Positions 10,860 through 30,797 of a stretch of 64,000 nucleotides of DNA are shown one piece after another (positions within the stretch are counted from its first letter, which is position 1; each line of letters starts with the position of its first letter). The position numbers and the translations under genes are program-made. Origin of the DNA: Parahoeflea alexandrii (GTDB taxonomy: Bacteria > Pseudomonadota > Alphaproteobacteria > Rhizobiales > Rhizobiaceae); NCBI RefSeq assembly GCF_027214025.1, contig NZ_JAPWHB010000006.1:248001-312000 (forward strand), given 5' to 3'. The notes below the pieces were generated by a model that saw only the letters and a program-made list of their open reading frames with translations, was not told the DNA's origin and searched no databases.

Positions 10860-11062
10860 AGTCAAGTTCCAGTTTCGAGGATGCGGCAGTGACGGGTGAG
10901 CCGATCGAGGAGCGCAGTGCTCATCTTGGCGGTCGCCAAACCCGCTGGCCCACGCGCTGAAGCGGAGATTGGTGGTGATGATGCTGCTGGTGCGCTCATG
11001 GAGCTTGCTCTGCAGATGGAACAGCAAAGCACCGCTGACAACCGCCGACGTCTACTCCAGAC
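10860..11062 (-). pseudogene. istB: IS21-type istB fragment
   Basis: Reading the minus strand from 11062 gives SGALLFHLQSKLHERTSSI and TTNLRFSAWASGFGD, then after a frameshift near 10930 ALLDRLTRHCRILETG. These are successive conserved segments of the IstB transposition helper ATPase C-terminal half. No N-terminal Walker region and no istA are present, so this is a decayed scrap of an IS21-family element. The sequence 5-prime to it (11062-11165, minus strand) stays open in another frame but I do not recognise it. Confidence 0.7.
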
Positions 11063-11069
11063 GCGGCCA

Positions 11070-11479
11070 TACCGTCCTGCTGGAGCGCGAAAGGGTTGAA
11101 CGCGGACATGTCCCGGATCAACATGAAAACGGTCAAGAACACCTCGAAAAAGCCCATTCATTCACCGCCGTCGATGGAGTAGTGACTTCTGCCGGGCAGG
11201 CCAGAATCGAAATCGGCCTATGGACGCTTGATACCAATGTCGACATCCGCGACGTCCGCATGCCAGGTGATAAGACAAGCTCGGCTTACCATTCCTCGCA
11301 ATGCCCAAGCTCGCATGCCTCAGGCTCCGTATGCGCCATTATGAGACTACGGCCTACTGAGAATTCGCGTTAATGCGTCTGAATATACTTACACGGCAGC
11401 AGATAACTATCTCAGGGCAAGCGAAGTAAACCCCCGGATATTCGGATAGGCGCGACACAAACGTATTTCTATTTAAGAT
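11070..11479. other. Noncoding/degenerate interval between gene fragments
   Basis: The interval shows no intact gene. It joins an istB scrap to an amidohydrolase scrap and looks like a scar of past insertions or deletions. A minus-strand open stretch at 11090-11160 has no family resemblance that I can name. Confidence 0.4.
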
Positions 11480-11665
11480 ATCAGAATTTGCGGCTATTCG
11501 ATCGGCTGCATCGGCAAGCGTCAGGAGCCCCTTCACCAAGTGTTCTCGTGCCGTATCTGCATCAGGAGTATGGTATATGCCGTCGATTGACCGAACACAC
11601 ATAATCCCCACTGGTAGAACTCGCGCCACGTTGGAGGCATCATGAAGTGCCCCTGATGCGTTATG
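11480..11665 (-). pseudogene. C-terminal fragment of an M20-type amidohydrolase (N-carbamoyl-amino-acid hydrolase family)
   Basis: The minus strand encodes SGALHDASNVARVLPVGIM, CVRSIDGIYHTPDADT and a helix ending LADAADRIA. This matches the last about 60 residues of hydantoinase/carbamoylase-type M20 hydrolases (consensus SGAGHDA ... IFVPS..GISH.P.E). Nothing of the rest of the protein is present and the 5-prime end runs into the 3-prime end of the IclR gene. It was probably once part of the neighbouring cyclic-amide catabolic locus. Confidence 0.6.
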
Positions 11666-12422
11666 TCGATATTGAGCGCGCCGCCTGGATGGCCAGAGGA
11701 GCATTGCGTTCTTCGAACGCCTCAACAGTCCAGTCGGCGAGGGATCCGGAGATGTGGATTGCGCCGAGTGGCGTGCCGTCGCTTTGCAGAATTGGGGAGG
11801 CCAGAACGATTTCGCCCAGCATCATTTCCTCCATGCACAGCGCATAGCCCTTCTCGCGGGCCTGATCGACTCGCTCAAGGATTTCGGCTTTATCGATGAT
11901 CGTCTTTGGGGTGATCTTCCTCAGGTTCGAGCGCTCCAGGATATCTTCACGCTGCTGGCGGTCGAGATGGGCCAGCACGACCCGTCCGCCGGTGCTGGCG
12001 AAGGTGGGAACCTGCCGGCCGATCAGAGTTGCGTAGAAGGTCTGACGTTTCGTCTGACGCCGCAGCACGTAGATCATCGTCAGGTCGTTGAAGAGGCTTA
12101 CGTCCACTCGCTCGCCTGTCTCGGCCTGAAGCTGCATCAGGACCGGGCTGGCGCGCTGGACTACCGGCGAATTGCGCAGGAACTCGAAGGCGTGTTCCAG
12201 GAACTTACGTCCGATCCCATAGGTCCGGTTCGAGCCCCGCTCGAGATAGCCCAGCTGGACCAGGGTGTAGGAGAGCCGCTGGACCGTGCTGGAATCTAGG
12301 CCGGAGGCCTTCTGCATCTCCTTGTGCGTCATGTGTCCGCCATTGGAATGGTCGTTGAAAGCCTGAAGCAGCACGAATGCCTTCTCCAGCGATTTCATAT
12401 AGAGAGAATTGTTTTCATTCAT
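11661..12422 (-). CDS. IclR family transcriptional regulator
   Basis: A 253-residue regulator: winged helix at about residues 10-65 (SLEKAFVLLQAF, KASGLDSSTVQRL) and a GAF-like effector domain (LIGRQVPTFASTGGRVVLA, GEIVLASPI, GAIHISG). The start follows GAGGAGGA. It is divergent from a Liv-type ABC operon; the shared 110 bp contains a strong promoter and an inverted repeat between its -35 and -10 boxes. It most likely controls that operon in response to the transported compound. Confidence 0.92.
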   Translation of the reverse strand: MNENNSLYMKSLEKAFVLLQAFNDHSNGGHMTHKEMQKASGLDSSTVQRLSYTLVQLGYLERGSNRTYGIGRKFLEHAFEFLRNSPVVQRASPVLMQLQAETGERVDVSLFNDLTMIYVLRRQTKRQTFYATLIGRQVPTFASTGGRVVLAHLDRQQREDILERSNLRKITPKTIIDKAEILERVDQAREKGYALCMEEMMLGEIVLASPILQSDGTPLGAIHISGSLADWTVEAFEERNAPLAIQAARSIST

Positions 12423-12457
12423 GATTTGTCCTCCTCACCGGCGCCCGTCCGCCGGTC

Positions 12458-12487
12458 TTGACATGATACACAATATCAAATTAAGAT
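12458..12487 (+). promoter_or_regulatory. Promoter and operator of the Liv-type operon
   Basis: TTGACA (12458-12463) and TAAGAT (12482-12487) are 18 bases apart, a good sigma70-type promoter reading toward the binding-protein gene. Between them lies the inverted repeat TGATA-N5-TATCA (12464-12478), well placed for repression by the adjacent IclR protein. Confidence 0.6.
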
Positions 12488-12532
12488 TTATCATATTACA
12501 ATGCAATATAAAAGATCAACTAGGAGTTTGTA

Positions 12533-13684
12533 ATGCGATCCATCGTTTCACTGAGCGCAATGGCTGTGGCTATCTCCGTTTCCGTCTTTGCAGGGTCCTC
12601 GTTCGCGCAGGACAAACCGGTCAAGCTGGGAGTCATGCTTCCGCTCTCGGGCCCCGCGGCGCTGGCAGGGACCTCCATCCTCGAGGGCATCCAGTTCGCG
12701 GCAGAAGAGAACAACGCCAAGGGCGGCGTCCTCGGACAACAAGTCGAACTTGTCATTGAGGACGACGAAGGTAATGCGACCAAGGGCGTGACGGCTGTCC
12801 GCAAGCTGATCGAGCAGGAGGGCGTGGCCGCCATCAGCGGAACCTATGTCAGCGGCGTGGCGCTTGCTGCGACGAAGGTCGCGCGGGAATTCAAGGTTCC
12901 GATGATCTCCGCAGGCTCGACGTCGTCCGACGTGACCGATTACAACGAGGCAGGCGATCCCTGGTTCTTCCGCGCCTTCCCCGGCAGCCGCGAACAGGCG
13001 CGTCAGTCGGCCGTCGACATGGTGAAAAAGTTGGATGCGACCAAGGTCGCCGTGCTGCACGAAAATTCGGTTTACGGAAAGTCGCTGTCCGACTCGCTTG
13101 CCGCCAACCTTGCGGAAGTGGGGGGAGCTATCATCCTCACCGAAACCTACAACCCCGATGAGCGCGATTTCTTTTCGGTCCTGACGAAGGTGCGCGCGGC
13201 CCAGCCGGACGCGGTCTACATCGCCGGGCTGATGGATGCAGGTGCGCAGATCATCAAGCAGTCAGCGGAACTGGGTGTCGAGACGCAGATCATGGGCTCC
13301 GGCTCGATGATGAGCGACAAGCTGATTGAACTCGCCGGTCCCGCATCGGAGGGCTTTGCTGTCTCCTCAATGTTTGAACCCAGCACGCCCAACGAATTCG
13401 GCGCTGCCTTTACCGAACGCTTCCGCGCCAAGTTCAACAAGGAGCCGGACGTCTACAGCGCGCTTGGCTATGACTCCATGAACGTCCTGATCGAGGCCGT
13501 GCGCCGGGCCGGCGTTGCCGACGGCGCCGCCATCCAGGCCGCACTGAAAGGCATGGACGACGTCCCGCTGGTGCAGGGGCCGCAGGGCACCGTCGCCGAC
13601 TTTGACGAGCAAGGCAGCGTGCCCTTCAAGATCGGTCTCGCGATCGTCCGCAACGGCAAGCGCGAATGGCTTCCTTTCGACTAA
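12533..13684 (+). CDS. Branched-chain-amino-acid-type ABC transporter, substrate-binding protein
   Basis: A LivK-like periplasmic binding protein of 383 residues with signal peptide ending SVFAGSSFAQ. It has the family start VKLGVMLPLSGPAALAG, then AAEENNAKGGVLG, the SAGSTSSDVTD ligand-site region and YGKSLSDSLAAN. The ABC genes livH, livM, livG and livF follow directly. The Liv family transports many things besides amino acids, including amides, urea and aromatic acids. Here the downstream amidase and NodB-fold hydrolase point to an amide or cyclic imide ligand (inference). Confidence 0.92.
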   Translation: MRSIVSLSAMAVAISVSVFAGSSFAQDKPVKLGVMLPLSGPAALAGTSILEGIQFAAEENNAKGGVLGQQVELVIEDDEGNATKGVTAVRKLIEQEGVAAISGTYVSGVALAATKVAREFKVPMISAGSTSSDVTDYNEAGDPWFFRAFPGSREQARQSAVDMVKKLDATKVAVLHENSVYGKSLSDSLAANLAEVGGAIILTETYNPDERDFFSVLTKVRAAQPDAVYIAGLMDAGAQIIKQSAELGVETQIMGSGSMMSDKLIELAGPASEGFAVSSMFEPSTPNEFGAAFTERFRAKFNKEPDVYSALGYDSMNVLIEAVRRAGVADGAAIQAALKGMDDVPLVQGPQGTVADFDEQGSVPFKIGLAIVRNGKREWLPFD

Positions 13685-13696
13685 GGCCCGGAGCAC

Positions 13697-14581
13697 ATGG
13701 TGTCTGATCTCGTATTATTGCCACAATTTCTGACGAACGGGCTGGTCATCGGATCGGGCTATGTGCTCGTCGCGGTGGGGCTGACCCTTATCTTCGGAAT
13801 TCTTCACATCGTGAACTTTGCCCACGGCGAGTTCTACATGCTGGGGGGCTTCGCAGCGGTTCTCGGCTCGCAGCTGCTTGGCTTGCCTGCCCTCCCCACC
13901 CTTCTGGTCGTCGCGGTAGTGATGGCGGCATTCGGACTGGTTGTGGAACGAGTGGTTTTCAGACCCCTGGGCGGAAAGGACCCGACCAATGCAATCATTG
14001 CATCGTTCGGCCTTTCCGTCCTGCTTCAAAACCTGATGCTGAAGACTGTGGGCGCAGAGCCCATGGCCGTAAAAAGCGGATTTGCTCCCGGGGCGATCCA
14101 GATCGGCAATGTCTTCATCACCGCCGAACGGATCGCCATCGTGGCTGCGATGGCCGTCATCGTGGCCGCCCTGCTGTTGGTCCTGCGCTACACCTGGACC
14201 GGCAGGGCCTTGCGGTCCCTGTCTGAAAACCCGACCGTAGCTCTCATCAGCGGAGTGAATGTCCGCCGCGTCTCGCTGATCACCTTCGTGATAGGAAGCG
14301 TTCTGGCGGGCCTTTCGGGCGCGTTGATGTCGACCGTCTTCATGGTGCAGCCCAATTCAGGGGCCCTGATTGTGATGAAGGCCTTCATCATCGTGGTTGT
14401 TGCTGGCATGGGAAGCATAGAGGGCGCCATCATCGTGGGGCTTGCGCTCGGGCTCATCGAGTCGCTCGTGGCGGGATACATGGGCAACGAACTCCGCGAC
14501 ATAGTTGGCTTCCTGATCGTGATCCTTGTTCTGGCGGTCCGCCCGCAAGGACTATTCGGTCTGAAGACTGAAAGATCCTGA
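13697..14581 (+). CDS. Liv-type ABC transporter permease (LivH family)
   Basis: A 294-residue inner-membrane permease with about eight hydrophobic segments. It has the hallmark GLTLIFGILHIVNFAHGEFYMLG near the N-terminus and SENPTVALISGVNV plus VAGMGSIEGAI toward the C-terminus. The gene lies 12 bp after the binding protein and one base before livM. It forms the heterodimeric pore with LivM. Confidence 0.94.
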   Translation: MVSDLVLLPQFLTNGLVIGSGYVLVAVGLTLIFGILHIVNFAHGEFYMLGGFAAVLGSQLLGLPALPTLLVVAVVMAAFGLVVERVVFRPLGGKDPTNAIIASFGLSVLLQNLMLKTVGAEPMAVKSGFAPGAIQIGNVFITAERIAIVAAMAVIVAALLLVLRYTWTGRALRSLSENPTVALISGVNVRRVSLITFVIGSVLAGLSGALMSTVFMVQPNSGALIVMKAFIIVVVAGMGSIEGAIIVGLALGLIESLVAGYMGNELRDIVGFLIVILVLAVRPQGLFGLKTERS

Positions 14582-14582: not shown

Positions 14583-15491
14583 ATGCGAACTCCTCTGATC
14601 CTTCTGCTGACAACGGCGATCGCCTGTGCGCTGCCCGCCGTCCTGGAAAGCGGTTACTTCATCAACGTCGCGATCATCGCCTTGATCTACGTGATCCTGG
14701 CATCCAGCCTTGACATCATGATGGGCTGGACCGGCAAGTTCTCCTTCGCCCACGCGGCCTTTTTCGGGATAGGCGCCTACACCGCGGCGATGATGCAACG
14801 CAGCTTCGGCACTGACCTATGGGCGCACCTGCCGGCGGGCATGGCCGCGGCCGCATTGTTCGGCGTGCTTCTCGGGCTGCCATCACTCCGCCTCCAGGGA
14901 CATTTTCTGGCAATCATGTCCATAGCATTCCAGACGGTTGTCTATCTGGTGCTGGCGCAATGGACGGACCTCACCGGGGGGCATTACGGCCTGCCCGTCG
15001 AGGTGAGCCCGGAGCTTGGCAATGTCTCGACCTTCTACTTCGTGACGCTAGGCTGCACCCTTGTCGCTTGCCTGTTCGTCTGGTTCCTGACCCAGTCCCG
15101 GTTCGGCGATACTCTGACCGCGATCCGCGACGACGAGACACTCGCCCGCACCATCGGCATGGACACGAATGTCATCAAGATCGTCGCCTTCGCGATTTCC
15201 TCGGCCCTGGCCGGTGGCGCAGGCGTCCTCATGGCGCACCACATCCGTGGCGTCACGCCCAACGATTACACCGTCATGACTTCGGCCACCATCGTTGCCA
15301 TGGTCGTGCTCGGCGGGCGCGGCAAGTTCTGGGGACCCATCGTGGGGGCACTGATCCTGACCATCCTCCCCGAGGTGCTGTCTGACCTCGCCGAATACAA
15401 GCACATTATGTACGGCGCTCTCCTGATCTTCATGATCATGGTTATGCCGCAAGGCGTAGTCGGAGCCCTGACTGGAAGGAAAGCGAAATGA
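14583..15491 (+). CDS. Liv-type ABC transporter permease (LivM family)
   Basis: A 302-residue permease with the LivM motifs SLDIMMGWTGKFSFAHAAFFGIGAY, IRDDETLARTIGMD and VVLGGRGKFWGPIVGA. It is a short LivM without the N-terminal extension of some homologues. Its stop overlaps the livG start (ATGA). Confidence 0.94.
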   Translation: MRTPLILLLTTAIACALPAVLESGYFINVAIIALIYVILASSLDIMMGWTGKFSFAHAAFFGIGAYTAAMMQRSFGTDLWAHLPAGMAAAALFGVLLGLPSLRLQGHFLAIMSIAFQTVVYLVLAQWTDLTGGHYGLPVEVSPELGNVSTFYFVTLGCTLVACLFVWFLTQSRFGDTLTAIRDDETLARTIGMDTNVIKIVAFAISSALAGGAGVLMAHHIRGVTPNDYTVMTSATIVAMVVLGGRGKFWGPIVGALILTILPEVLSDLAEYKHIMYGALLIFMIMVMPQGVVGALTGRKAK

Positions 15492-16270
15492 CCCCGCCGA
15501 TTCTTGAGGCGAGAGGGCTGAGCAAGTCGTTCGCCGGCATGGTGGCTCTCGACAATCTGTCGTTCTCGGTGAACGAGGGAGAGATCGCAGGACTGATTGG
15601 CCCGAACGGGTCGGGCAAGTCGACGGTGGTCAATCTGATTTCCGGGGTCCTGGTTCCCACTTCCGGCCAGGTGGTGATGCGCGGACAGGATGTCACGGGT
15701 GCGCCTGCCCACCAGATGGCCCGCCGGGGTGTCGCCCGCACCTTCCAGATGATCCGGCTGTTCGGAACTCTCTCCGTCGAAGACAACATCGCGTTGGCCC
15801 TGCAGCAGAAGGAGGGGCCAGGTTACGTTTCCTCGTTCTTTCGAACGCCAGCCGCGCGGCGGCAGCGCGCCGCAGCGGGCGTTACGGCACGCGAAATGCT
15901 GAAACTCTTTGATCTGGAGGAGAAAGCCTCAGATTTGGCCGCGGACCTGTCAATCGGACAGCGTCGCATGGTCGAACTGGCCCGCGGCCTGGCCTCCGAA
16001 CCGACGGTTTTCATTCTGGACGAGCCCGCGGCTGGGCTTGCGCCCCACAATGTCGACCGCCTCATCGAGATGATACGCCGCATGCGGGATGAGTTCGGCG
16101 TCACCATTCTCCTGGTCGAGCACGTCATGCGCGTCGTCCAATCGGTCTGTGACCGGGTGGTGGTGCTCGATTACGGCCAGAAGATTGCGGACGGCCCCCC
16201 GGCGGAGGTTGTCAACCAGCCCGAGGTCATTGAAGCTTACATCGGATTGGGGCGCGGAAAAAATGCTTGA
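15488..16270 (+). CDS. Liv-type ABC transporter ATP-binding protein (LivG family)
   Basis: A 260-residue ATPase with Walker A GPNGSGKST, the LivG-specific region RTFQMIRLFGTLSVEDN, a degenerate signature LSIGQRRMVELARGL and Walker B VFILDEPAAGL. It ends with the BCA ATP-binding tail EVIEAYIG. It overlaps livM by four bases and livF by eight. Confidence 0.94.
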   Translation: MTPPILEARGLSKSFAGMVALDNLSFSVNEGEIAGLIGPNGSGKSTVVNLISGVLVPTSGQVVMRGQDVTGAPAHQMARRGVARTFQMIRLFGTLSVEDNIALALQQKEGPGYVSSFFRTPAARRQRAAAGVTAREMLKLFDLEEKASDLAADLSIGQRRMVELARGLASEPTVFILDEPAAGLAPHNVDRLIEMIRRMRDEFGVTILLVEHVMRVVQSVCDRVVVLDYGQKIADGPPAEVVNQPEVIEAYIGLGRGKNA

Positions 16271-21122: not shown

Positions 21123-21926
21123 TCAGTTGCAAACCTCGTAGGCGCCGTCTATCGGTTGATTGACGCCGCAGATGATCCCGCCCCACTGGTATCCGACACC
21201 GTCGCCGAACCTGATCTGAAACCACGGATACCCATTCATGATATCGCCGGTTCTGGCGAGAATTTCGATTGGAGTACGTTCGGCCACGCTTCCCAGCTTG
21301 TCGTATTCGAGACCGGGTCCCGAGCGGACGATACCACCCCATGATTTTGCCGGCGGGAATGATCCTCTGTCGCCTTGCCGCGGATTGAGTGGCGTCGGCT
21401 GCGTGACAATCACGGGTGCGATAACAGGACCGGAGTTGGCCATGGCTGGCTGACCGGACTGGTCGGGTTGCTGCACCTGGGACGCGCTGCCGATCGTCAC
21501 GGTCTGTTGCGGGGCCGCGCTAGCGACATAGCGCTGGACTTCGCTCTGATTGACGCCGAATACCCAGACCTGATTCTGCCGGACATCGTATTCCTGGGAT
21601 GCGCCCGGCGCAATTGTGGCGACCGACACCATCTGCTGGGCCGTGTCGTCGAAACGGTAGCTGTCGACCGGTTGAGCGAGCGAGTTTGTCACTCGCAGCT
21701 TTGCCGCTCCGACCGGCTGCATGGCCGGGGTTGACGAGCCGCCCTGCGACAACCTCTGGGATTGCGATGTTCCGATTTGTCCTCCAACCACGCCTGGTTG
21801 CCCGTGGCCGAGCGGTTGCTGCTTGCCAAGCGGCTGCTGGGTTCCCAGCGGTTGCTGCTGGGCGTCGGCCGGAAGCGCAATGGCAAACGCTGCCAGGATC
21901 ATGCATGGGATACGAAGGTACATCAT
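21123..21926 (-). CDS. Exported protein: PLG repeats, VHL-beta-like domain and SH3b domain
   Basis: A 267-residue predicted secreted protein with signal peptide MMYLRIPCMILAAFAIAL ... ADAQ. A low-complexity stretch follows with four QQPLG/GQPG-type repeats (about 24-45). Residues about 72-140 form a beta-rich module (LRVTNSLAQPVDSYRF ... YDVRQNQVWVFGVNQ) resembling the VHL beta domain and paralogous to one in the next gene. The C-terminal about 65 residues look like a bacterial SH3 domain (GIVRSGPGLEYDKLGSV, GYPWFQIRF, GYQWGGIICGV). Its function is unknown. It belongs to a seven-gene group of exported proteins. Confidence 0.75.
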   Translation of the reverse strand: MMYLRIPCMILAAFAIALPADAQQQPLGTQQPLGKQQPLGHGQPGVVGGQIGTSQSQRLSQGGSSTPAMQPVGAAKLRVTNSLAQPVDSYRFDDTAQQMVSVATIAPGASQEYDVRQNQVWVFGVNQSEVQRYVASAAPQQTVTIGSASQVQQPDQSGQPAMANSGPVIAPVIVTQPTPLNPRQGDRGSFPPAKSWGGIVRSGPGLEYDKLGSVAERTPIEILARTGDIMNGYPWFQIRFGDGVGYQWGGIICGVNQPIDGAYEVCN

Positions 21927-21975
21927 AATTGGTTTCCTTGCCTTTCCCTGCGGGACGTCAAGCGCTCAGGCACGG

Positions 21976-23160
21976 TCATTCCGGCCCAAAGCCAGGACTT
22001 TGCCGTGTCATGGTGTAAGTGGCTTGACCCTGCTTGGGCCTGAACGCCTCGATGCAGTTCCCCGGACCATCGGTGAAATCCCAGACATGGCCGGTCGATG
22101 TCTGCACTTCCAGATACTCGCCGTCATTGAGTTGTGAAATCTGCACGAATTGCCCATTGCCATCCACCCAGTATAGAGCCCGGTACTCGCCCGTCGCATT
22201 GATGAGCCTGAGCGTCAGGGGTTGCCCTCCGGTCGAGCGCCGGGTGCCCTGATAGCCGCAGAACGGATCCAACTGGGCGGCGCGCGCCGGATCGGCAGCT
22301 TCGTCCGCAAATGTCGCGCAATCGCGAATGAAGGCGTCGAGAGGCTGCACAATGCCCGTGGTTCGGATGTTGACGAGTTCGCCGCCTTGAATCCCGTACC
22401 GTACCTCGGCCGCTTCGCGGAAAAGGTTCCAGACCGGCGCCCGAGTATCGGACTGGAACCCGTAGCCGGTGAAAGCTTCGCTTGATTCTGGGACGAGGAT
22501 AACTCCGTTCACAGTCGTGGATCGTTTGTCGGAGGAGAATGCCACGCTGACCTCGGACCCTGCGGTGGCGGGGTTGACCCGGGCGGCGATCGTCATATCG
22601 ATCATTCCGCCGCTGCCGCGGCTGCAGGTGGCGCCAAACTGCGCATTGTCGGTTTCGGGAACCGAAAATGACAGCGTCGCGGTGGGGCCGAAATTGGTAT
22701 AATCGTCGATATACCGGGCATATGTCCAACTGAAGCCATCACCGAACGCAGGGCTTGACAGCGATGTCGGCTGCAGCATCGGGTCCGCACCGGGCGGGCC
22801 GCGGCCGCCAGCGTCTTCTACCGGTGTGACAGCGCCGCCGTTCGCACCAATGGTGAATGCTTGCCGGGCGTCGGCGGTTGTCTGGTACCGGGTTATTTCC
22901 GCTTGGTTCTGTCCGAAGACCCAGACCTGTCCCTCCCAGGATTCCTGATCAACCGAGCCGCCGGCGACTATCGTGGAGTAAGGCTTGATCGAGCCATCGG
23001 CAGGATCGATCAGATAGTAATCCACAGGTTGCCCGGTAGCGTTGATGAACCGCACGCTCACCAGTTCCGGCCTGACAATCGACAACGCCATTGACGGCTT
23101 CGCGGGAAGTAATGAAGTGAACCCAAGGAAAACGGCCAGTATGAACATGCGCATTTGCAT
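21976..23160 (-). CDS. Exported protein with two VHL-beta-like domains
   Basis: A 394-residue protein with signal peptide (MRMFILAVFLGFTSLL). Residues about 34-112 form one module: VRFINATGQPVDYYLID, a PYSTI strand, and WEGQVWVFGQNQAE. The C-terminal about 70 residues form a second: LRLINATGEYRALYWVDGNG and TSTGHVWDFTDG. Both follow the VHL beta-domain pattern (R-x-x-N-x-S/T, YW-x-D-x-x-G, ...GHVW-x-F), the second very clearly. The central 200 residues (around DGFSWTYARYIDDY) are beta-rich and unfamiliar. The gene ends 50 bp before its minus-strand neighbour and is divergent from the giant protein gene. Confidence 0.78.
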   Translation of the reverse strand: MQMRMFILAVFLGFTSLLPAKPSMALSIVRPELVSVRFINATGQPVDYYLIDPADGSIKPYSTIVAGGSVDQESWEGQVWVFGQNQAEITRYQTTADARQAFTIGANGGAVTPVEDAGGRGPPGADPMLQPTSLSSPAFGDGFSWTYARYIDDYTNFGPTATLSFSVPETDNAQFGATCSRGSGGMIDMTIAARVNPATAGSEVSVAFSSDKRSTTVNGVILVPESSEAFTGYGFQSDTRAPVWNLFREAAEVRYGIQGGELVNIRTTGIVQPLDAFIRDCATFADEAADPARAAQLDPFCGYQGTRRSTGGQPLTLRLINATGEYRALYWVDGNGQFVQISQLNDGEYLEVQTSTGHVWDFTDGPGNCIEAFRPKQGQATYTMTRQSPGFGPE

Positions 23161-23551
23161 AGGGCTCCCGAGACGAAGATTACGGAACGGCCACGGCCCC
23201 GATTTGATGTGTCATTCGCAATCCAGCGCGGTGCGGTCCGTGAACGGAACCGCCGAATTTGATGGATGAGCGAAGATGAAAAGCCATCAATAAGCATTCG
23301 TCAAGCGAATATCACGCAAGCAATACTCCGCGGGAAAACTATTTGACTCAAGACGGAAACTCCCCTCTACTTTCACTTGCATTTAGAAGCTGCATGCTTG
23401 TGTTCCGATATTGCTGCGGCTTGATCTGGATTGAAATCTCATGGCTCAGTGGGCTTTCTGTAGCTGGACCAGGGACATAGGATCATCATAAGTCTGCGGC
23501 GCAGCAAGCTTTCGGAGCCGAACGACTGATAACTGGAAAAGGTTGGTCTGC
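23161..23551 (+). promoter_or_regulatory. Divergent intergenic region; candidate promoter for the giant protein
   Basis: Noncoding. TTGACT (23343-23348) and TCTACT (23366-23371) are 17 bases apart and could drive the plus-strand gene about 180 bp downstream. I see no inverted repeat or other operator. Confidence 0.3.
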
Positions 23552-26500
23552 GTGATAAACTGGTTTTCCAAGCGCCTTGTGGCCCTTTGCCTCTCGCTTC
23601 TTGCAACTTTCCTCATTGTGGCTCCGCAGTCTTTCGCGCAGCAGCAAGACCGTGTGTTGCGCGTGGAAAACCCGACAGCGCAATCCCTGCGTATTTTCGC
23701 ATTCAGCTCGGTGGACAGGCAGCCAGATCAGATAGGGCAGGTTGATAGCGGTTATTTTGTTAATGTTGAGGTCAGGCAAGGGTGGCGTATCCAACTGGCA
23801 AACCAGAATGAATGGGTGGGAAGCCCCTACGATGTAACCGACGCCCCGGAACAAGTGCTCTCTCCTTCAATCGCGGACAACGGCAACTCGGGTCCGGACA
23901 ACTCACAGGTCGCTGGCGACGATGCTCAGCAGGCGCCGCAGATCGGCGACGGCTCGGTGATTGTCCGCTTTGAAAACCCGTCCGACCGGGTATTGCGCAT
24001 CCATCACATCCTGCCCGACCGAAGCGGTGCGCCTCTGGTTGCAGAAGTCGATTCCGGTTTCTTCATCGACATCCCGGCCCAGGCTGGCGCGGAGATCGGC
24101 ATCGCCGATGACACCGGCTGGGTGGGGGAAACCTATCAGGTCACCGGCGTCGCCCCGGAAGTGGTGAGCTTGCCTGTCCAGAGCGACGGGCAGATCACGA
24201 ACGATGGCGCTGACCAGGAAGGCGGTGCGGTCTCCCAGGCGCCGCGGATCGGCGACGGGTCGGTGATTGTCCGCTTTGAAAATCCGTCCGACCGGGTCTT
24301 GCGCATCCATCACATCCTGCCCGACCGAAGCAGCGCGCCTCTGGTTGCAGAAGTCGATTCCGGTTTCTTCATCGACATCCCGGCCCAGGCTGGCGCGGAG
24401 ATCGGCATCGCCGATGACACCGGCTGGGTGGGGGAAACCTATCAGGTCACCGGCATCGCCCCGGAAGTGGTGAGCCTACCCGTTGCGGCCGCGCGACAGA
24501 ATGCTGACGGTACGGCTGAGCAACCGCCGCAGATCGGCGACGGATCGGCCGTGGTGCGGCTTGAGAACCCGACGCCGACGACCCTGTTCATTCACTATAT
24601 TCTGGACGACGGCAGCGATGCGCCGCTGGTTGCGGAAATCGCGTCAGGCTCGGCTCTTGACATCCGGGCGCAGGCTGGCGCCATCATCGGCGTGTCGGAC
24701 GGAAACGACTGGACCGGCGGCCAATACGTGGTGAACGGGAGTGGTTCGGAAACCCTGTCTCTGCCGTTGCCGGTCAGTCAGGTCGCCTTGGCGGGGCAGG
24801 TAGGGAACGGATCGATCCTGGTTAACATCGCCAATCCGGCAAATGAGGCGATGGGGGTCTACATCGTCCCCCCTGACGGCGTCGAAAGCCAGCTGGTTGC
24901 CGCGATCGAGCCTGGCGAAACCTTGGTTCTGCCGGCCCAGAGCGGATACCAGATCGGCTTCTCACCGGGCGGTGACTGGTACGGCGGACTGTATACGATC
25001 GGGTCCGCTGCCAACCAGAGCATTTCCCTGCCGCTGCAAAAGAGCTTCCGTGCCGGAAATGGCGCGATTGCGTCCAGCATCACCAATTCCGGCGCGGTAG
25101 AGCTCGGCATCTACAGGATCGCGGATGGTCAGTCCGAAGCAGTCGGCTCGGTAACGTCCGGCGAAACGGTGCGGCTCGATGCGGATCCGGGAATGATCTT
25201 CGCATTCTCGCCGGGCGGCCCCTATGTCGGCGGCAATCTGACCATATCGCAAACCTCGGGGCAGTCGTTTCAGGTGCCGCTGCCGTTGAGGACCGGAAAC
25301 GGGCAATTCACGGTGCGCGTCGCCAACCAGTCAGGGCGATCCCTCGCAGTGCTTGCCTTGTCGCACGACGTGTCGCAGCCTCCGGAATTCCTTGGAACCC
25401 TGCCAGCGGGCGGTTCGGTGGATGTGCTGGCGGGTGCCGGAAACAAGATCGGCTTTTCGGATGAGAATGGCCTGATCGTCGGCGGCAGTTACACCGTTCT
25501 GGCTCAGAACGGGCAGCAGATCTCGGCGCCGCTGCCGCTGATCTATGGCGAAACCAATGGAGCAGTGACCACGCGCATCACCAACACCAGCGGCGAGCCG
25601 CTCGAAATCAGCGTCGTGGATTCCAGCAGCGCCTCGGTGATCGGCGGGGTCGCCGCCGGTGAAACGATTGTCTTTCAATCCCCGCCCTGCACAATGCTCG
25701 GCTTCTCGTCGCCGGAGACACGCGAATGGGTCGGCGGCATGTTCCAGACGTCCCGCGATGCGCAGCAATCCGTCCGCGCTCCGACAGGCGCGGACAGCGA
25801 TCCCGGAAAATGCATGCTGCTGACAAATGCGCAGTTGCAGGCGGTCATGGCAAAGATCGCGGTAGAAAACGTCCGCCTCGCTGAAGAGGAAAAATCGAAG
25901 ACCCGGTTCTGCTGGAAAGCGACCTATGGACGCGGCGTCGGCACGGTGCCGCGAAACTGCCCTCCTGGTCAGTCGGAAGACACCGCCGGCCTTTGCTACG
26001 ACAATTGCAAGCCCGGCTACAAGCCCTTCGTCACGATGTGCATTCCGAATGCGTGTCCGGCCGGTTTTACCGATACCGGCTTGCACTGCCTCAAGCCCGC
26101 GCCCGTGGAGCGCGCTGCGTTTCCCTGGAAATTGGGTGATACGCCGTTCAGCCTTGACGATGCGCGCGCGCGGTGCCGCAAGAGCAGCTACGGCAAGAAA
26201 TACGGATGCGGGACATACAATTCCAACACCATCGTCTATTCGAAATGCCCGAGCGGCTACAAGACGGCGCCGCTTCTCACCAACCTGTGCACGCCCGTCT
26301 GCCCGCCTTCCATGATCGATATCGGCGTTTCCTGCCAGAAGGTCACCTATGACCGCGGCGTCGGCAACCTGATGTCCTGCAGCGGCGGAAAGGAGCGCGA
26401 CGCCGGACTTTGCTACGACAAGTGCGAGGCCGGTTATACCGGCGTCGGCCCTGTGTGCTGGAACAGCTGCCCGGCCAAGTTGCCGGTCAATTGCGGCGCG

Positions 26501-27085
26501 GCCTGCGCTGCCTCGTCCAATGACTGCGCTTTGACTGTTACCGACCAGGTGACAGGCCCGATCATGACCGCTGCAAGTGTGGCGCTGATTGCCGTCACCG
26601 CGGGTGCCGCCTCCGGCGCGACGGCTGCCGCGAACTCTGCCAAGACGGCCGCCACGACCGCAGGCAAGGCAGGCGGACAGTTGGCGGCCAAATCCACGAG
26701 CCGTGTCGCAGCGCAGGCGGCATTCAGGCAACAGGTGGTCGCGGCCCTGTCCAAGGCTGCGACGAACGCCGCGACCAAGGCAGTGGTCAAGGACCTTACG
26801 CTTGACATCGCCCTTTCGGCTGTGATTTCCGGCGCGATCTACGCCGATTACTCCGCCGAAGCGAAGGCAGCCATGCGCCAGCAGGTAAGGGATGCATTCG
26901 ATGGATCCTATACAGTCGGCGGTGAAATCGACCCGAAGGTCATCGATGCCGCTGTCGCCGCAGCGATCGAGGGGGCCGAACAGAGCAATCCGGCTGAAGA
27001 TTTCCCCTGGACGTCGCTCGACCCGACAGGCGTGGCAGACATCGTGGTGGCGTACAATCATCCGATCTGCTCGGACGTAAAATAA
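23552..27085 (+). CDS. Giant exported protein: eight tandem VHL-beta-like modules, Cys-rich region, Ala-rich helical tail
   Basis: About 1177 residues. A signal peptide (LVALCLSLLATFLIV ... SFAQ) is followed by eight modules of about 75-100 residues beginning near residues 36, 135, 237, 333, 420, 506, 587 and 670. Each starts VRxENPS-like, has an xxSGxxxDI strand, then an IG-x5-6-WVG turn and ends near SLP. Modules 2 and 3 are almost identical. Residues about 785-995 hold 21 cysteines, with CPPGQSEDTAGLCYDNC echoed by CSGGKERDAGLCYDKC. A long Ala-rich helical, partly hydrophobic stretch follows (about 1005-1115), then a conserved-looking tail (SLDPTGVADIVVAYNHPIC). GTG 23552 is preferred over TTG 23543, because GGAAAAGG ends at 23542. 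Function unknown; an adhesin or membrane-active secreted protein is plausible. Confidence 0.75.
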   Translation: MINWFSKRLVALCLSLLATFLIVAPQSFAQQQDRVLRVENPTAQSLRIFAFSSVDRQPDQIGQVDSGYFVNVEVRQGWRIQLANQNEWVGSPYDVTDAPEQVLSPSIADNGNSGPDNSQVAGDDAQQAPQIGDGSVIVRFENPSDRVLRIHHILPDRSGAPLVAEVDSGFFIDIPAQAGAEIGIADDTGWVGETYQVTGVAPEVVSLPVQSDGQITNDGADQEGGAVSQAPRIGDGSVIVRFENPSDRVLRIHHILPDRSSAPLVAEVDSGFFIDIPAQAGAEIGIADDTGWVGETYQVTGIAPEVVSLPVAAARQNADGTAEQPPQIGDGSAVVRLENPTPTTLFIHYILDDGSDAPLVAEIASGSALDIRAQAGAIIGVSDGNDWTGGQYVVNGSGSETLSLPLPVSQVALAGQVGNGSILVNIANPANEAMGVYIVPPDGVESQLVAAIEPGETLVLPAQSGYQIGFSPGGDWYGGLYTIGSAANQSISLPLQKSFRAGNGAIASSITNSGAVELGIYRIADGQSEAVGSVTSGETVRLDADPGMIFAFSPGGPYVGGNLTISQTSGQSFQVPLPLRTGNGQFTVRVANQSGRSLAVLALSHDVSQPPEFLGTLPAGGSVDVLAGAGNKIGFSDENGLIVGGSYTVLAQNGQQISAPLPLIYGETNGAVTTRITNTSGEPLEISVVDSSSASVIGGVAAGETIVFQSPPCTMLGFSSPETREWVGGMFQTSRDAQQSVRAPTGADSDPGKCMLLTNAQLQAVMAKIAVENVRLAEEEKSKTRFCWKATYGRGVGTVPRNCPPGQSEDTAGLCYDNCKPGYKPFVTMCIPNACPAGFTDTGLHCLKPAPVERAAFPWKLGDTPFSLDDARARCRKSSYGKKYGCGTYNSNTIVYSKCPSGYKTAPLLTNLCTPVCPPSMIDIGVSCQKVTYDRGVGNLMSCSGGKERDAGLCYDKCEAGYTGVGPVCWNSCPAKLPVNCGAACAASSNDCALTVTDQVTGPIMTAASVALIAVTAGAASGATAAANSAKTAATTAGKAGGQLAAKSTSRVAAQAAFRQQVVAALSKAATNAATKAVVKDLTLDIALSAVISGAIYADYSAEAKAAMRQQVRDAFDGSYTVGGEIDPKVIDAAVAAAIEGAEQSNPAEDFPWTSLDPTGVADIVVAYNHPICSDVK
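23941..24481 (+). repeat. Near-identical direct repeat inside the giant gene
   Basis: Bases 23941-24175 recur at 24247-24481, offset 306 bp (102 codons), with only about eight differences. They encode modules 2 and 3. Other modules are much more diverged, so this is a recent in-frame duplication or gene conversion. Confidence 0.85.
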
Positions 27086-27124
27086 TGGGTGGAACCTCTC
27101 GCAGGTTCTGGAAGGAGTATGAAG

Positions 27125-27913
27125 ATGATTGATCCGCTCGACTGGCTCAAGAGAGGCATGGCAATAGCGCTCGTGCTCCTGGCGACCGTGGCGCAGGCCT
27201 GGTCCGACGCCGCGACGATCCAGAATCGATGGACCTCCGGCTACCTGTTGGCGGGGAACGGATTCCAGCTGTCGCCGGATGTCGCGTCTCCCAATTCGGG
27301 CTGGGACTTCGAGCAACTCCCCGGTGAGCCATTCGTACGCCTTCGCAGCCTTGCGACCGGGCAATACCTGCATGTCGAAAACGGCCCCTTGCAGGAAGGC
27401 CAGATCGAACCGGGCTGGTGGTCGGCGATGTGGGCGCTGGAGAACGTCGAGGGACAGTTCTATCGCTTGCAGAACCGTTGGAAGCCGGATCAGTACATCA
27501 TGACCGATGAGGCCGGGCGCGTTTCCGTTGGATCGATCGAACCGGGTTGGTGGTCGGCGATGTGGTCGTTTCAGGCGACCCAGGCGGCACAGCGCTCGCT
27601 GCCGGTGGTCAACGCGCCAACGACTTTGCCCCCGTCCAACACGCAGCCGGCCTCGGTCACGATCGAGCAGGCGACAGGTCAGCCAGCCGTCGAGCTTTAC
27701 GTGCAGAATTTCTCGGCGGCGCCACTGGATGTGTTCATCGACATTCCGGGCAATGATCCCGCCTATGTGCAGACTGTTGGACCGGGCCAGCAGCTTCGCC
27801 AGAAGTCACCGGCCGGAGCGACATGGAGCCTGGCTCAGAACGACCAGTGGGTCGGGGATTACCAGTTGTCGGGGCAGAACCTGCAGGTGATAAGATATCC
27901 CGACGGGCGCTGA
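27125..27913 (+). CDS. Exported beta-trefoil-like protein with C-terminal VHL-beta-like module
   Basis: About 262 residues. The start at ATG 27125 sits seven bases after GGAG; an ATG at 27119 is too close to it. After the signal peptide (LKRGMAIALVLLATVAQAW), residues about 28-155 contain repeated TIQNRWTSGYLLAGNG / YRLQNRWKPDQYIMTD blocks and two copies of EPGWWSAMW. These fit a ricin/fascin-type beta-trefoil. The last about 75 residues (LYVQNFSAAPLDVFID ... WSLAQNDQWVGDY) are a single module like those of the preceding giant protein, 39 bp upstream. Likely co-transcribed; the trefoil could bind carbohydrate, but ligand residues cannot be assigned. Confidence 0.72.
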   Translation: MIDPLDWLKRGMAIALVLLATVAQAWSDAATIQNRWTSGYLLAGNGFQLSPDVASPNSGWDFEQLPGEPFVRLRSLATGQYLHVENGPLQEGQIEPGWWSAMWALENVEGQFYRLQNRWKPDQYIMTDEAGRVSVGSIEPGWWSAMWSFQATQAAQRSLPVVNAPTTLPPSNTQPASVTIEQATGQPAVELYVQNFSAAPLDVFIDIPGNDPAYVQTVGPGQQLRQKSPAGATWSLAQNDQWVGDYQLSGQNLQVIRYPDGR

Positions 27914-27966
27914 TCGCTGGCGAAAACCGCGACCGCTGGGCAAGACAACGAGAAGGAACAGAAGGC

Positions 27967-29139
27967 ATGATTGATCGGGTTCTTTACACTGCGAGCGCCA
28001 TCATTCTCGTTGCGCTCCATTCCGGCGCGTCCCACGCCATGCTGCCGGGTGATCCCGCAGGCGCGGCAGTGGATCGGGAGCCGTCCATATCAAGCCTGAC
28101 CGACGACGGCAGCTACATGGTAGCCGACGGTCTGGGCAAGAAGATCAGGAATGTCTTCAGAAAGAAGCCCTCCGCGCCGGGGCAATTGCCGCAACCGGGT
28201 ATCCCGTTGCGCAACAACACCTATGGCCCCGCGCCGAATCTGGGTCCTAACGCGCTGCCGCCGGCCCAGGCGCTGCCTGCACCCACTGGCCAGTACGGAC
28301 CGGCCCCTGCGCCAAGTGGGCCGAACCTGCCTGCGCCGGGACAGTACACGGCCGCGCCTGCCGCGCCTGTGGGAGGCGGATTGCCGCCTCCGGGCGGCGT
28401 ATACGGGCCAGCGCCTGTCGGGGGGGCGAATTTGCCTCCGCCCGGCGGCAATTATGATCTCGCGCCGGGCGCGCCGGGAGTTGGCCGCCCGGTCGGCCCC
28501 AATCAGAACGCGGGCGCCCTGCCTCCGCCCGGTGGCCCGGCAAATCCGGCGCCCAACAACAATGGCATCTACGAGAGCGCGAACCAGCCATTGGACGGCA
28601 ATGCCGTGCCGTTCGGGGGCGTGGGCAACAATGGAGGCGGCCTCAGGCCGAACGATCCCGGTGTTTTGCCGCCCAGGAACCAGAATGCGAATATCTACGA
28701 CCGGGTCGATATGCCGCCGCCTGGCACCCTGCCGCCGTTCGGGGGCGTGGGAAATAACGGCAACGGCCTGCAGGCCGGCGTCAATGGCGGCCGGCTTCCG
28801 CCACGTAACCAGAACAATCTGGGCGGCAACCAGTTGCCACCTGCCAGGCAGGCGAATGCCGGCGCGCAAGGCGGTGTTCCTCTCCGGCGCAATGACGACG
28901 CCATCGTCGTGGAAGGTGATTTCTACGTTCCCGAACGCGCGCAGATGCGTCCGAAAAAGAGCACCCCCAAGGCGCTCAAGGTCGTCGTCGGGACCGCTGC
29001 GACGACGCTCGTTCTCTTGGCCGGAGCGGGCACTGTTTTCGGGCTGGAACGCGGCGAGGTGGTCGATATGGGCGATGACGTCAAGAACGCGTTCGACGAA
29101 GTCGAGTCGAGCATCATGGGCCTTGTGAACGGAAACTGA
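27967..29139 (+). CDS. Exported Pro/Gly/Asn-rich protein with C-terminal membrane segment
   Basis: A 390-residue protein; start at 27967 after AGAAGG. The signal peptide (VLYTASAIILVALHS ... ASHA) is followed by a basic KKIRNVFRKK stretch. About 220 low-complexity residues come next, built of LPPPGG, YGPAP and PFGGVGNNG repeats. A hydrophobic segment lies near residues 335-360 (VVVGTAATTLVLLAGAGTVFG) before an acidic tail. The middle resembles extended cell-wall or cell-surface spacers. With two hydrophobic ends it may be anchored in the inner membrane and span the periplasm. No enzymatic domain seen. Lies 53 bp after the trefoil gene, in the same direction. Confidence 0.7.
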   Translation: MIDRVLYTASAIILVALHSGASHAMLPGDPAGAAVDREPSISSLTDDGSYMVADGLGKKIRNVFRKKPSAPGQLPQPGIPLRNNTYGPAPNLGPNALPPAQALPAPTGQYGPAPAPSGPNLPAPGQYTAAPAAPVGGGLPPPGGVYGPAPVGGANLPPPGGNYDLAPGAPGVGRPVGPNQNAGALPPPGGPANPAPNNNGIYESANQPLDGNAVPFGGVGNNGGGLRPNDPGVLPPRNQNANIYDRVDMPPPGTLPPFGGVGNNGNGLQAGVNGGRLPPRNQNNLGGNQLPPARQANAGAQGGVPLRRNDDAIVVEGDFYVPERAQMRPKKSTPKALKVVVGTAATTLVLLAGAGTVFGLERGEVVDMGDDVKNAFDEVESSIMGLVNGN

Positions 29140-29215
29140 GAAGCAGTACGGCATCACGCCGGTAGCGCCTCCCGATTTGACCGGCATCCCGGGCGGAACA
29201 TTTGAAAGGGCCAGA

Positions 29216-29788
29216 ATGCGATCGAGATATCTCCTGTTCGTGCTGCTGCCACTGATTGGCGGCCCTTCGATTGCTTCGGCTGCGTTGCCAAAGATCGGCC
29301 CGGCGGACACGGCTGCAACGCAAACGCATGTTTCTACATTGTCGGTCGATGTGCCCGCGATGGGACCGCGCCTCGCGCTTGGTGGCCAGGGCGGCTATCA
29401 GGTCGCCCAGGCAAGCGCGCTCAAATTCCTGCGCAATGTTCCGACGCCGCGTCTCAGGATGCCCAAGCCCTCCGCGTTCCCGAGACTGGGCAGTGTGACC
29501 ACAGCGCTCAAGGCTGTTCCGCCCCCCAGGCCGGGCGCCCTTGCGAAGGTCGGCCCCAAGGCGGCCAGCTTCAACCTGCTGCCCAAGGGACTTCGCAAAT
29601 TACCGAAGCCATCCTACAAGAAGCTGACAACCGCGGCCGCAAGGTTACGGCCAAATCCGCGGGAACTCATGAAGGACTTGGCCATCTCCGGATCGATGTT
29701 CGCACTGGGAATTGTCCCGGGTGAAATCATCGAGCAAATCTATCCGGTTGAAGACGCTGCGCCGGTGGCGCGGACCGACACGCAGTGA
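29216..29788 (+). CDS. Exported basic protein of unknown function
   Basis: A 190-residue predicted secreted protein. Start at 29216 after GAAAGGG; signal peptide SRYLLFVLLPLIGG ... IASA. The mature part is rich in Pro, Lys and Arg (VPTPRLRMPKPSAFPRL, GLRKLPKPSYKKL) and ends with a hydrophobic stretch (DLAISGSMFALGIVPGEIIEQI). I recognise no family. It is the last of four same-direction genes in the exported-protein group. Confidence 0.65.
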   Translation: MRSRYLLFVLLPLIGGPSIASAALPKIGPADTAATQTHVSTLSVDVPAMGPRLALGGQGGYQVAQASALKFLRNVPTPRLRMPKPSAFPRLGSVTTALKAVPPPRPGALAKVGPKAASFNLLPKGLRKLPKPSYKKLTTAAARLRPNPRELMKDLAISGSMFALGIVPGEIIEQIYPVEDAAPVARTDTQ

Positions 29789-29894
29789 TGAAGTGACGGC
29801 GGCAAGCCCTGCGTGAGCGCCACAGCCAATCTGGTCTGCATCCGTCAACCCGTTTTCAAAGCGACCTCGGGCTATCTCTTTCCAATCAGAACAG

Positions 29895-30797
29895 TCAATT
29901 CACGCTTCTGCATGCCTGGATGCTGCTGTACCAATCGGCGCCGTGGGCAATCTGGATGTTGAAGCATTGAATGCGCGCGCCGATATCCGTGCTCTGGCTG
30001 CACAGATCGGCCGCATTGGCGGGCTGCCAGGCCGCATTGCCCTGGCGGTCCCAGGCGACATTGCCGCTCATCACGTAGTGCATGCAGTTCGCCGGCCGAA
30101 CATCCATGCGCATGTCGCCGCACACCCTGTCAATGATGCCCGGCTCATAGGTCACGGACTGGTTTCCCGCATACTGGTTGGGACCGTTCAGGAAATCTCG
30201 ACAGGCGTAGGGTGGCTCGGCGTTCATGACGGTCTGGGAACTGCCCGCGCCGTAGTTGGTGCAGGTTTGCAGGAATGCGCCAATCCTCTCCCGATCTCTG
30301 TCGGTTACCCGCAACGGAACTCCGCCATTTCCCGGATCCGCGTCGATGCGCAGTTCGTAGCGTGAGCCAGGTTGCATCAGGGTCCGGAAAAAGACCGAAT
30401 CCACTGGGATTGAAACGCCGTATCGGGTCAATTGATCGCCGGCGTTGACGGTCGCGATCTGATCGATGTTGCCAAGAAGAAACATGTAGTTTCCGTCCTC
30501 GAGGCGGACTTTCAGGTTCTGGCTGGGATAGAGCGTTTCGCCGCCGCGGGGCTGGATAACCGTGGTTATGTAAGGCGTGGGTTGGTTGGGGTTGCAAATG
30601 GCGGAAAACAATTGCTTGCGGCTGACCTCCTCGCTGCCGAGAAACGAGGCGGAATGGATATAGTTGAGCCGGGCCCCTTCGGACGAAACATAGACGTTCC
30701 AGATCGTGCTGCTGCTACTGGCGGAGGCGGGCGCGGTTCCACCTGACAAGAGCAATGCCAAGACCATGAGTGCGGATTTGCGTTTTCGAACAGGCAT
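29895..30797 (-). CDS. Exported two-domain protein of unknown function
   Basis: A 300-residue protein. I place the start at 30797 (GGGAGAG just upstream) with signal peptide SALMVLALLLSGG ... ASASA; the longer frame lacks this. The first part (about 30-190) is beta-rich: IWNVYVSSEGARLNYI and LEDGNYMFLLGN. The last about 100 residues hold six cysteines and the segment ANAADLCSQSTD ... IQCFNIQIAHGADWYSSIQAC. This looks like a small disulfide-linked domain of secreted proteobacterial proteins; I cannot name it. Convergent with the preceding gene and the right edge of the exported-protein group. Confidence 0.68.
   Translation of the reverse strand: MPVRKRKSALMVLALLLSGGTAPASASSSSTIWNVYVSSEGARLNYIHSASFLGSEEVSRKQLFSAICNPNQPTPYITTVIQPRGGETLYPSQNLKVRLEDGNYMFLLGNIDQIATVNAGDQLTRYGVSIPVDSVFFRTLMQPGSRYELRIDADPGNGGVPLRVTDRDRERIGAFLQTCTNYGAGSSQTVMNAEPPYACRDFLNGPNQYAGNQSVTYEPGIIDRVCGDMRMDVRPANCMHYVMSGNVAWDRQGNAAWQPANAADLCSQSTDIGARIQCFNIQIAHGADWYSSIQACRSVN

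What the first reader, a model, noticed from the sequence alone, without database searches (positions are those of the whole stretch)
21123..30797. Seven-gene cluster of exported proteins built on VHL-beta-like modules: possible undescribed secreted or surface system
Seven adjacent genes all encode proteins with N-terminal signal peptides, and no metabolic gene interrupts them. Four share a roughly 75-residue beta-rich module (NxS/T start, GxVW/WVG turn) that resembles the eukaryotic VHL beta domain. The others are trefoil-, repeat- or Cys-based with no enzyme motif. Module-sharing across four neighbours implies local duplication and a joint function. A large Cys-rich and helical protein, a lectin-like protein, a periplasm-spanning Pro-rich protein and an SH3b protein together suggest an extracellular binding apparatus or a toxin-like complex. 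That role is inference.
Basis: partly seen in the sequence, partly recalled or inferred. Interest (0 to 1): 0.88.

Follow-up and report, generated by a model that had tools for sequence, protein, structure and literature searches.

The report
Exported VHL-like protein gene cluster
A bacterium carries a block of seven neighbouring genes for proteins that carry export signals, four of them built from copies of a domain related to the human VHL tumour-suppressor protein; partly matching blocks occur in a few relatives, and the job of the block is unknown.

Summary
Seven adjacent genes (21123-30797) encode proteins with export signals; four (A, B, C, D) share one module, in 1, 2, 8 and 1 copies. 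A profile made from A/B-type modules alone recovers C (E 4.9e-10) and D (1.1e-5) among 305 ORFs. "VHL-beta-like" is right at the level of homology: the window's modules fail the Pfam VHL cut-off, but a 33-row profile, mostly of relatives in the order, finds VHL chains in the PDB at E 1.1e-9, and 25 of the 33 match PF01847 at E up to 1. Nineteen of 33 keep five residues of VHL's hydroxyproline site; none of these is from the window. Parts of the block recur: homologues of A, B-core and G lie together in a congener and in CP018226.1 of another family, with a Tyr/Pro-repeat protein, an MliC domain and an uncharacterised domain. But 20 other module loci show no such neighbours. My best reading: an exported envelope or surface assembly whose VHL-beta modules bind proline peptides, perhaps the Yxx[A/L]P repeats of E. 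That is inference; no structure could be predicted.

The parts
21123..21926 (-). Gene A, 267 aa: signal peptide, Gln/Pro-rich linker, one VHL-beta-like module, bacterial SH3 domain
   Evidence: (SH3_3 28.4 bits)
21483..21707 (-). VHL-beta-like module of A
21189..21338 (-). Bacterial SH3 (SH3_3) domain of A
21976..23160 (-). Gene B, 394 aa: signal peptide, VHL-beta-like module, Cys-containing core domain, second VHL-beta-like module
   Evidence: (VHL 13.5 bits, below cut-off 21)
22837..23064 (-). VHL-beta-like module B1
22261..22788 (-). B core domain, related to the N-terminal domain of gene H of relatives and, more weakly, of G
   Evidence: hhalign; profile search; relatives
21997..22221 (-). 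VHL-beta-like module B2, the most VHL-like of the window (W, T, H, W of the pocket kept; Ile at the Tyr98 position)
23543..27085 (+). Gene C, 1180 aa (TTG start, GGAAAAGG upstream): signal peptide, eight VHL-beta-like modules, Cys-rich region, Ala-rich C-terminus that looks helical by eye
23648..25792 (+). Eight tandem VHL-beta-like modules of C (23648-23872, 23954-24187, 24260-24493, 24545-24778, 24812-25045, 25055-25294, 25304-25546, 25559-25792)
   Evidence: 287-nt direct repeat
25808..27082 (+). Cys-rich region (to about 26557) and Ala-rich C-terminus of C; no Pfam family over cut-off
27119..27913 (+). Gene D, 264 aa: signal peptide, ricin-type beta-trefoil-like domain, VHL-beta-like module at the C-terminus
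   Evidence: (RicinB_lectin_2 19.9 bits, cut-off 25.6)
27686..27907 (+). VHL-beta-like module of D
27967..29139 (+). Gene E, 390 aa from this ATG: signal peptide, Pro/Gly/Asn-rich, five Yxx[AL]P motifs, hydrophobic segment near the C-terminus (by eye)
29216..29788 (+). Gene F, 190 aa from this ATG: signal peptide, Pro-rich, no family found
29895..30797 (-). Gene G, 300 aa: signal peptide, N-terminal core-like domain, Cys/Trp-patterned C-terminal domain; full-length relatives in three other genomes
23161..23542 (.). Divergent intergenic stretch between B/A and C/D/E/F, presumably holding the promoters
   Evidence: gene layout; promoters not tested

Best explanation
The block encodes an exported set of proteins that assembles in the periplasm or on the cell surface. 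VHL-beta modules in A, B, C and D act as small proline-peptide-binding adaptors. Their most likely partner is E, an exported protein with repeated Yxx[A/L]P motifs and a membrane segment; a repeat protein of this kind is also present in the two sister clusters. The SH3 domain of A would hold the assembly to peptidoglycan, the trefoil of D would bind glycan, and B and G add related small domains. The sister clusters also carry an MliC lysozyme-inhibitor domain, which points to protecting or docking the envelope during contact with hosts, grazers or rivals. Shown here: export signals (by rule), shared modules, VHL homology through intermediates, recurrence of part of the set, and the repeat motif. 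Inferred: assembly, proline binding by these particular modules, peptidoglycan and glycan binding, and the protective role.
For: Module shared by four neighbours. VHL homology: PDB E 1.1e-9; PF01847 in 25 of 33 members at E up to 1. At five positions of VHL's hydroxyproline site the 33 modules have W 27, Y 22, S/T 30, H 25, W 32; rank-sum p 0.0002 among 70 core columns, on the 28 rows not from the window or L045. With His110, the sixth residue that PMC9528729 names (passages), p is 0.004. Yxx[AL]P occurs 5 times in E, 16 and 14 times in its counterparts, against shuffle means of 0.30, 1.56 and 1.18. A, B-core and G homologues lie together in G150 and in CP018226.1 (the B-core of the latter by profile, E 1.7e-9). 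MliC domains occur in both sister clusters, and trefoil, LprI and MliC in one protein of locus L039.
Against: The window's own modules have lost much of the pocket: A, B1, D and all eight C repeats lack W88 and H115, and no C repeat has W at 117; only B2 keeps W, T, H, W. The motif pattern and the pocket test were chosen after I had seen the sequences; repeats in E inflate the motif count, and E does not align with its counterpart in L020 (E 0.28). His110 is not conserved (rank 51 of 70). 0 of 20 other module loci have another gene with any other domain of the set nearby. No MliC match was found in the window's seven proteins. Conserved W and H may be structural. That bacterial SH3 domains bind peptidoglycan is recalled and not general.
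Confidence: 0.33

Rival explanations
1. Host-facing adhesin or coat: the VHL-beta modules and the trefoil bind hydroxyproline-rich or glycosylated surface proteins of algae, plants or animals rather than a partner encoded in the block.
For: The five pocket residues are kept in 19 of 33 aligned modules strictly, 22 with Y, H or F at position 98; modules occur with lectin-like domains, CVNH and SH3 both just under cut-off in L063 and a sub-cut-off trefoil in D; a related stretch lies on a plasmid of Nostoc sp. C057, source listed as Phaeoceros.
Against: The window's own modules have a degraded pocket; no host is known; no secretion system to the outside was looked for.
Confidence: 0.25
2. No joint function: a neighbourhood of independently useful exported proteins built from a common pool of small domains (VHL-beta, SH3, MliC, trefoil, core).
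For: 0 of 20 module loci outside the clusters have another gene with any of eight other domains of the set; gene content and orientation differ between the copies; C, E and F found no homologue by phmmer in the sister clusters.
Against: A, B-core and G homologues recur within about 8 kb in a congener and about 4 kb in another family, with a Tyr/Pro-repeat protein in each; B-core and the module are fused in one protein in 6 of the 20 loci (four of those six had gone into the core profile).
Confidence: 0.25
3. Toxin-like exported complex: VHL modules and trefoil deliver a variable large C-terminal domain (the Cys-rich and Ala-rich part of C here, the unrelated T domain in the sister clusters).
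For: The large module-bearing protein has a different C-terminal part in different genomes: C here, a T domain in L020, L023 and L060 (L060 to the T domain by hhalign E 3.3e-6); T proteins carry a module (for L020) and a trefoil-like region (E 1.9e-6 to the trefoil of D).
Against: No toxin family over cut-off and no PDB match below E 0.1 for the T domain or the C-terminus of C; catalytic motifs and immunity genes were not searched for systematically; no comparison with toxin sequences or folds was made.
Confidence: 0.12

Closest known systems
VHL beta domain (PF01847; von Hippel-Lindau protein)
   Same: Homologous module by profile (PDB E 1.1e-9; 25 of 33 aligned modules match PF01847 at E up to 1); pocket residues often kept in relatives
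   Different: With export signals, repeated, and in bacteria; window copies below the Pfam cut-off and with a partly lost pocket
Bacterial VHL-beta protein EMK97_00595 of Litorilituus sediminis (PMC9002001; abstract and passages seen)
   Same: A bacterial protein with predicted signal peptide and VHL-beta domain
   Different: Single protein described in silico; no cluster, repeats or pocket conservation in the passages that I saw
MliC / LprI lysozyme inhibitors (PF09864, PF07007)
   Same: MliC in both sister clusters; MliC and LprI in an L039 protein
   Different: No match in the window's seven proteins
Ricin-type beta-trefoil lectins (PF14200)
   Same: D matches below cut-off; an L039 protein over cut-off
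   Different: Combined with a VHL-beta module; sugar binding not known

Membership tests
VHL beta domain, PF01847 | Direct match over the curated score cut-off by the window's proteins | tested here: not met
   B 13.5 bits against 21; A, C, D no VHL match at E up to 1; 12 window and 2 L045 modules scanned singly, no VHL match
VHL beta domain, PF01847 | Homology of the module family to VHL | tested here: met
   33-row profile finds 24 distinct VHL chains at E 1.1e-9 to 1.2e-8; 25 of 33 members match PF01847, best 7.8e-13. 28 of the 33 rows are from other loci, four from the window, one from L045; the five-row cluster profile alone reached VHL only at E 1.1
VHL beta domain, PF01847 | Hydroxyproline pocket W88, Y98, S111, H115, W117 (His110 by its backbone) | tested here: inconclusive
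   Strictly all five in 19 of 33 rows, none from the window; C repeats keep almost none
VHL beta domain, PF01847 | Beta-sandwich fold | not testable with these tools
   Job interrupted
Human-type VHL ubiquitin-ligase subunit | Alpha domain binding elongin C | tested here: inconclusive
   No alpha-domain family among Pfam matches at E up to 1 for the seven proteins; that the library holds such a model is recalled
Bacterial SH3 domain, PF08239 | Score over cut-off | tested here: met
   A, 28.4 against 27 bits
Ricin-type beta-trefoil, PF14200 | Score over cut-off | tested here: not met
   D 19.9 against 25.6 bits; hhalign links it to the trefoil-like region of T proteins
MliC lysozyme inhibitor, PF09864 | Score over cut-off in the window's proteins | tested here: not met
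   No match in the window; met in L020 and L023 cluster proteins
Polymorphic toxin system | Toxin domain plus immunity gene and delivery domain | not tested

The most novel reading that the evidence does not exclude
Bacteria use exported VHL-beta modules as general proline/hydroxyproline-peptide readers outside the cytoplasm, and this block is a dedicated assembly in which such modules decorate a Tyr/Pro-repeat scaffold (E). The hydroxyproline reader of animal oxygen sensing would then have an extracellular bacterial counterpart with the same pocket.
Probability: 0.2. Interest if true: 0.85.

Novelty: new variant of a known kind. Interest (0 to 1): 0.55.

Why it matters
An exported-looking bacterial module family (31 of 249 genomes sampled in this order, the window's own included) with the same pocket residues in many members makes a direct question testable: do bacteria read proline or hydroxyproline outside the cell, and for what? 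The gene set gives a concrete place to test it, with a candidate ligand (E) encoded next door. My literature searches (listings seen, one paper read in passages) returned no description of such a cluster or of hydroxyproline binding by bacterial VHL domains; the library holds open-licence papers only.

Tried and rejected
Searching PF01847 directly in genomes gave 0 of 1 and 0 of 200. That tool warned that its control rang nowhere, and later calls (61, 66) show that the module is present, so I treat those zeros as false negatives. Searching the whole of C found the window plus one weak module hit in 41 genomes, no plasmid match, and genome contigs patterns without a relative. The C-terminus of C gave two weak hits besides the window in 289 genomes; I followed one, G562, where the long ORF looks like a phosphoglycerate dehydrogenase by eye and so is spurious, and did not follow G465. 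PDB and Pfam searches with the T domain and the C-terminus of C found nothing convincing. A phage or plasmid origin was considered and not supported: viral contigs gave no relative of G; the plasmid collection gave no match for C, G or a T protein and for A only its SH3 part, in one Vibrio record; phage records gave no match for one VHL-beta protein. Base composition shows no anomaly: GC of the block 0.616, window 0.617, left 0.594, right 0.633. Alignability of E to its counterpart in L020 was rejected; only the shared motif remains. A draft of this report said that most module-bearing relatives are solitary before their surroundings had been read; I then fetched and scanned 20 of them and state that result instead.
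Full report
WHAT IS THERE. Between an amidase/SDR pair and a LigA-like/LigB pair lie seven genes: A and B on the minus strand, C, D, E and F on the plus strand from a divergent 382-base gap, and G on the minus strand at the far end. Short gaps between B and A and between C, D, E and F suggest two operons; this is read from the layout, and transcripts were not tested. Start codons were chosen by eye from upstream bases and signal peptides: C starts with TTG behind GGAAAAGG, E at 27967 and F at 29216. By a simple rule 7 of 7 proteins have an export signal from some early start (6 of 7 from the first), against 14 of 47 (7 of 47) other window ORFs.

THE MODULE. A profile of five modules (A, B1, B2 and the A proteins of two relatives) was searched against 305 ORFs from the window and 17 fetched loci. 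It found C at E 4.9e-10 and D at 1.1e-5; the other hits were the seed proteins and three relatives (L017, L018, L019) that had been fetched because they match B. Iteration then scored all eight modules of C. Profile-profile E-values were 3.3e-8 (C against A/B) and 1.6e-8 (C against D). When a broader profile was iterated with relatives, six of the eight C modules scored below E 0.1, so the C copies are divergent. A 287-nt stretch of C is repeated at 90% identity, so duplication inside C looks recent.

VHL. Taken alone the window gives only hints: B matches PF01847 with 13.5 bits against a cut-off of 21; the five-row profile reaches VHL chains at E 1.1, behind an unrelated chain at 0.49; 14 cluster modules (12 of the window, 2 of L045) scanned singly gave no VHL match. 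Searching 249 genomes of the order with that profile found the module in 31, the window's own included; loci were given for the best 30 places. I aligned 33 modules: 28 of the 32 module segments read from those loci (left out: two of L061 with unread bases, L066 and L057 as near-duplicates), four of the window and one of L045. The C copies, the L020 modules and L018 were not included. The profile finds 24 distinct VHL chains at E 1.1e-9 to 1.2e-8, which represent one protein, and nothing else below 0.04; 25 of 33 members match PF01847 at E up to 1, best 7.8e-13. Genome searches with PF01847 itself returned nothing, which I judge a failure of that search's first look.

THE POCKET. In VHL the central hydroxyproline site is formed by Trp88, Tyr98, His110, Ser111, His115 and Trp117, His110 making its contact through the backbone (PMC9528729, passages seen). 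At the aligned positions the 33 modules have W 27, Y 22, T/S 30, H 25 and W 32; 19 have all five strictly, 22 if H or F is allowed at 98. In the 28 rows outside the window and L045 these columns rank 5, 14, 9, 7 and 4 of 70 in conservation (random draws, p 0.0002); His110 ranks 51, and with it p is 0.004. The test was made after I had seen the alignment, rows are related to each other, and conserved aromatic residues can be structural; it is suggestive only. In the window B2 has W, I, T, H, W; B1 has L, Y, S, Q, W; A keeps only the last W; D keeps S and the last W, its Tyr depending on the alignment. In the alignment no C repeat has W at 88 or 117 or H at 115.

RELATIVES OF THE BLOCK. A full-length relative of G occurs in one congener (2 of 18 genomes of the genus, the window's own counted) and in two genomes of another family in a sample of 297; 7 of 297 match at E up to 0.001, one being the window's own genome and four matching only over the C-terminal part. 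In the congener (L020) homologues of G, B-core and A lie within 6106-14163. They come with a Tyr/Pro-repeat protein, a 769-aa 'T' protein (module, trefoil-like region, uncharacterised large domain) and a gene 'H', and lie between IS240-type transposases at 2274-2870 and 15414-16232, with an integrase-core gene at 4390-4908. In Rhizobiales bacterium IMCC20636 (CP018226.1; L023 and L045) the same kinds of genes lie in 3292-13540. Its B-core gene (11564-12595) gave no single-sequence match to B and was recognised by a profile that did not contain it (E 1.7e-9). MliC domains sit in L020 7087-7893 and L023 8172-9185. In the third genome (NVXB01000003.1, MAG NORP22) the contig ends next to G; on the visible side there is one exported-looking gene and then unrelated genes, judged by eye, so this case does not show the cluster. 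A further locus, L039, has H-like, B-core-like, trefoil, LprI, MliC and G-C-terminal domains in four proteins.

AGAINST STRICT LINKAGE. B-core relatives in L016-L019 lie among genes that look unrelated by eye, except that L018 has a neighbour with an MliC-like stretch. Twenty module loci outside the clusters were fetched, most with about 8 kb on each side, a few cut short by contig ends. With profiles of nine domains on 1224 ORFs, 0 of 20 had another gene with a different domain of the set and 1 of 20 had a second module gene; in 6 of 20 the module-bearing protein also has the B-core (four of those six had gone into the core profile) and in 1 a T domain, likewise a contributor to its profile. 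No T protein was found in the window's genome.

DOMAIN LINKS. The trefoil region of D matches that of T proteins (hhalign E 1.9e-6), B-core matches H's N-terminus (8.4e-6) and whole H (2.9e-5), and G's N-terminus (1.4e-4, probability 53%); L060's C-terminus, behind three VHL modules, matches the T domain (3.3e-6). The other eight of 13 pairs gave E of 0.12 to 0.74, among them H against G, which speaks against a link of G to this group, and E against its counterpart. These E-values are for single comparisons.

THE REPEAT PROTEIN. E has Yxx[AL]P five times (shuffle mean 0.30, maximum 3 in 1000 shuffles); its counterparts have 16 (1.56, 7) and 14 (1.18, 6). The pattern was one of six tried and was picked after reading the sequences, and tandem repeats inflate such counts; still, the same motif recurs in all three. 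A 2-oxoglutarate oxygenase of the PF13640 kind, a family that includes prolyl hydroxylases (recalled), exists once in the genome on another contig; nothing links it to the block.

HOW IT MAY WORK. I propose an exported assembly with VHL-beta modules as proline-peptide adaptors on the E scaffold, anchored by the SH3 protein, in the service of envelope protection or surface docking; sister clusters add lysozyme-inhibitor domains. The loss of the hydroxyl-contacting positions in the window would fit plain proline rather than hydroxyproline. All of this paragraph is inference.

LIMITS. No fold could be computed; the organism of the window is not known to me; genome searches used 1981 of 2000 allowed genome scans, with many genomes counted more than once; and the cluster is documented in three genomes (the window's, G150, CP018226.1) plus one rearranged locus and one truncated case.

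Noticed in passing
L060 (G036) 1003-3117: A 705-aa protein with three VHL-beta modules followed by a T domain, showing that this pairing exists outside the block.
   Followed up: partly
L042 (G286) 7384-10353: A T domain behind other N-terminal repeats; the same stretch has a Nif11-like leader and a cupin-like gene nearby (both recognised by eye).
   Followed up: no
L063 163-1713: A single protein combining CVNH-like, bacterial SH3 and VHL-beta domains (CVNH and SH3 just under their cut-offs).
   Followed up: no
L038 9564-10802, L040 3246-4268, L041 4190-5446: The Cys/Trp-patterned C-terminal domain of G occurs, in L038 more than once, in otherwise different proteins; no Pfam family over cut-off was found in the two G proteins scanned.
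   Followed up: partly
plasmids AP018275.1 and NZ_CP040290.1: VHL-beta-like stretches on cyanobacterial plasmids of Calothrix and of a Nostoc whose source is listed as Phaeoceros.
   Followed up: no
L020 5665-6009: A further small exported-looking protein (114 aa) next to the cluster in the congener, with no Pfam match at E up to 1e-4.
   Followed up: no
L018 10128-10625: An MliC-like stretch in the gene beside a B-core plus VHL-module gene, outside the clusters.
   Followed up: partly
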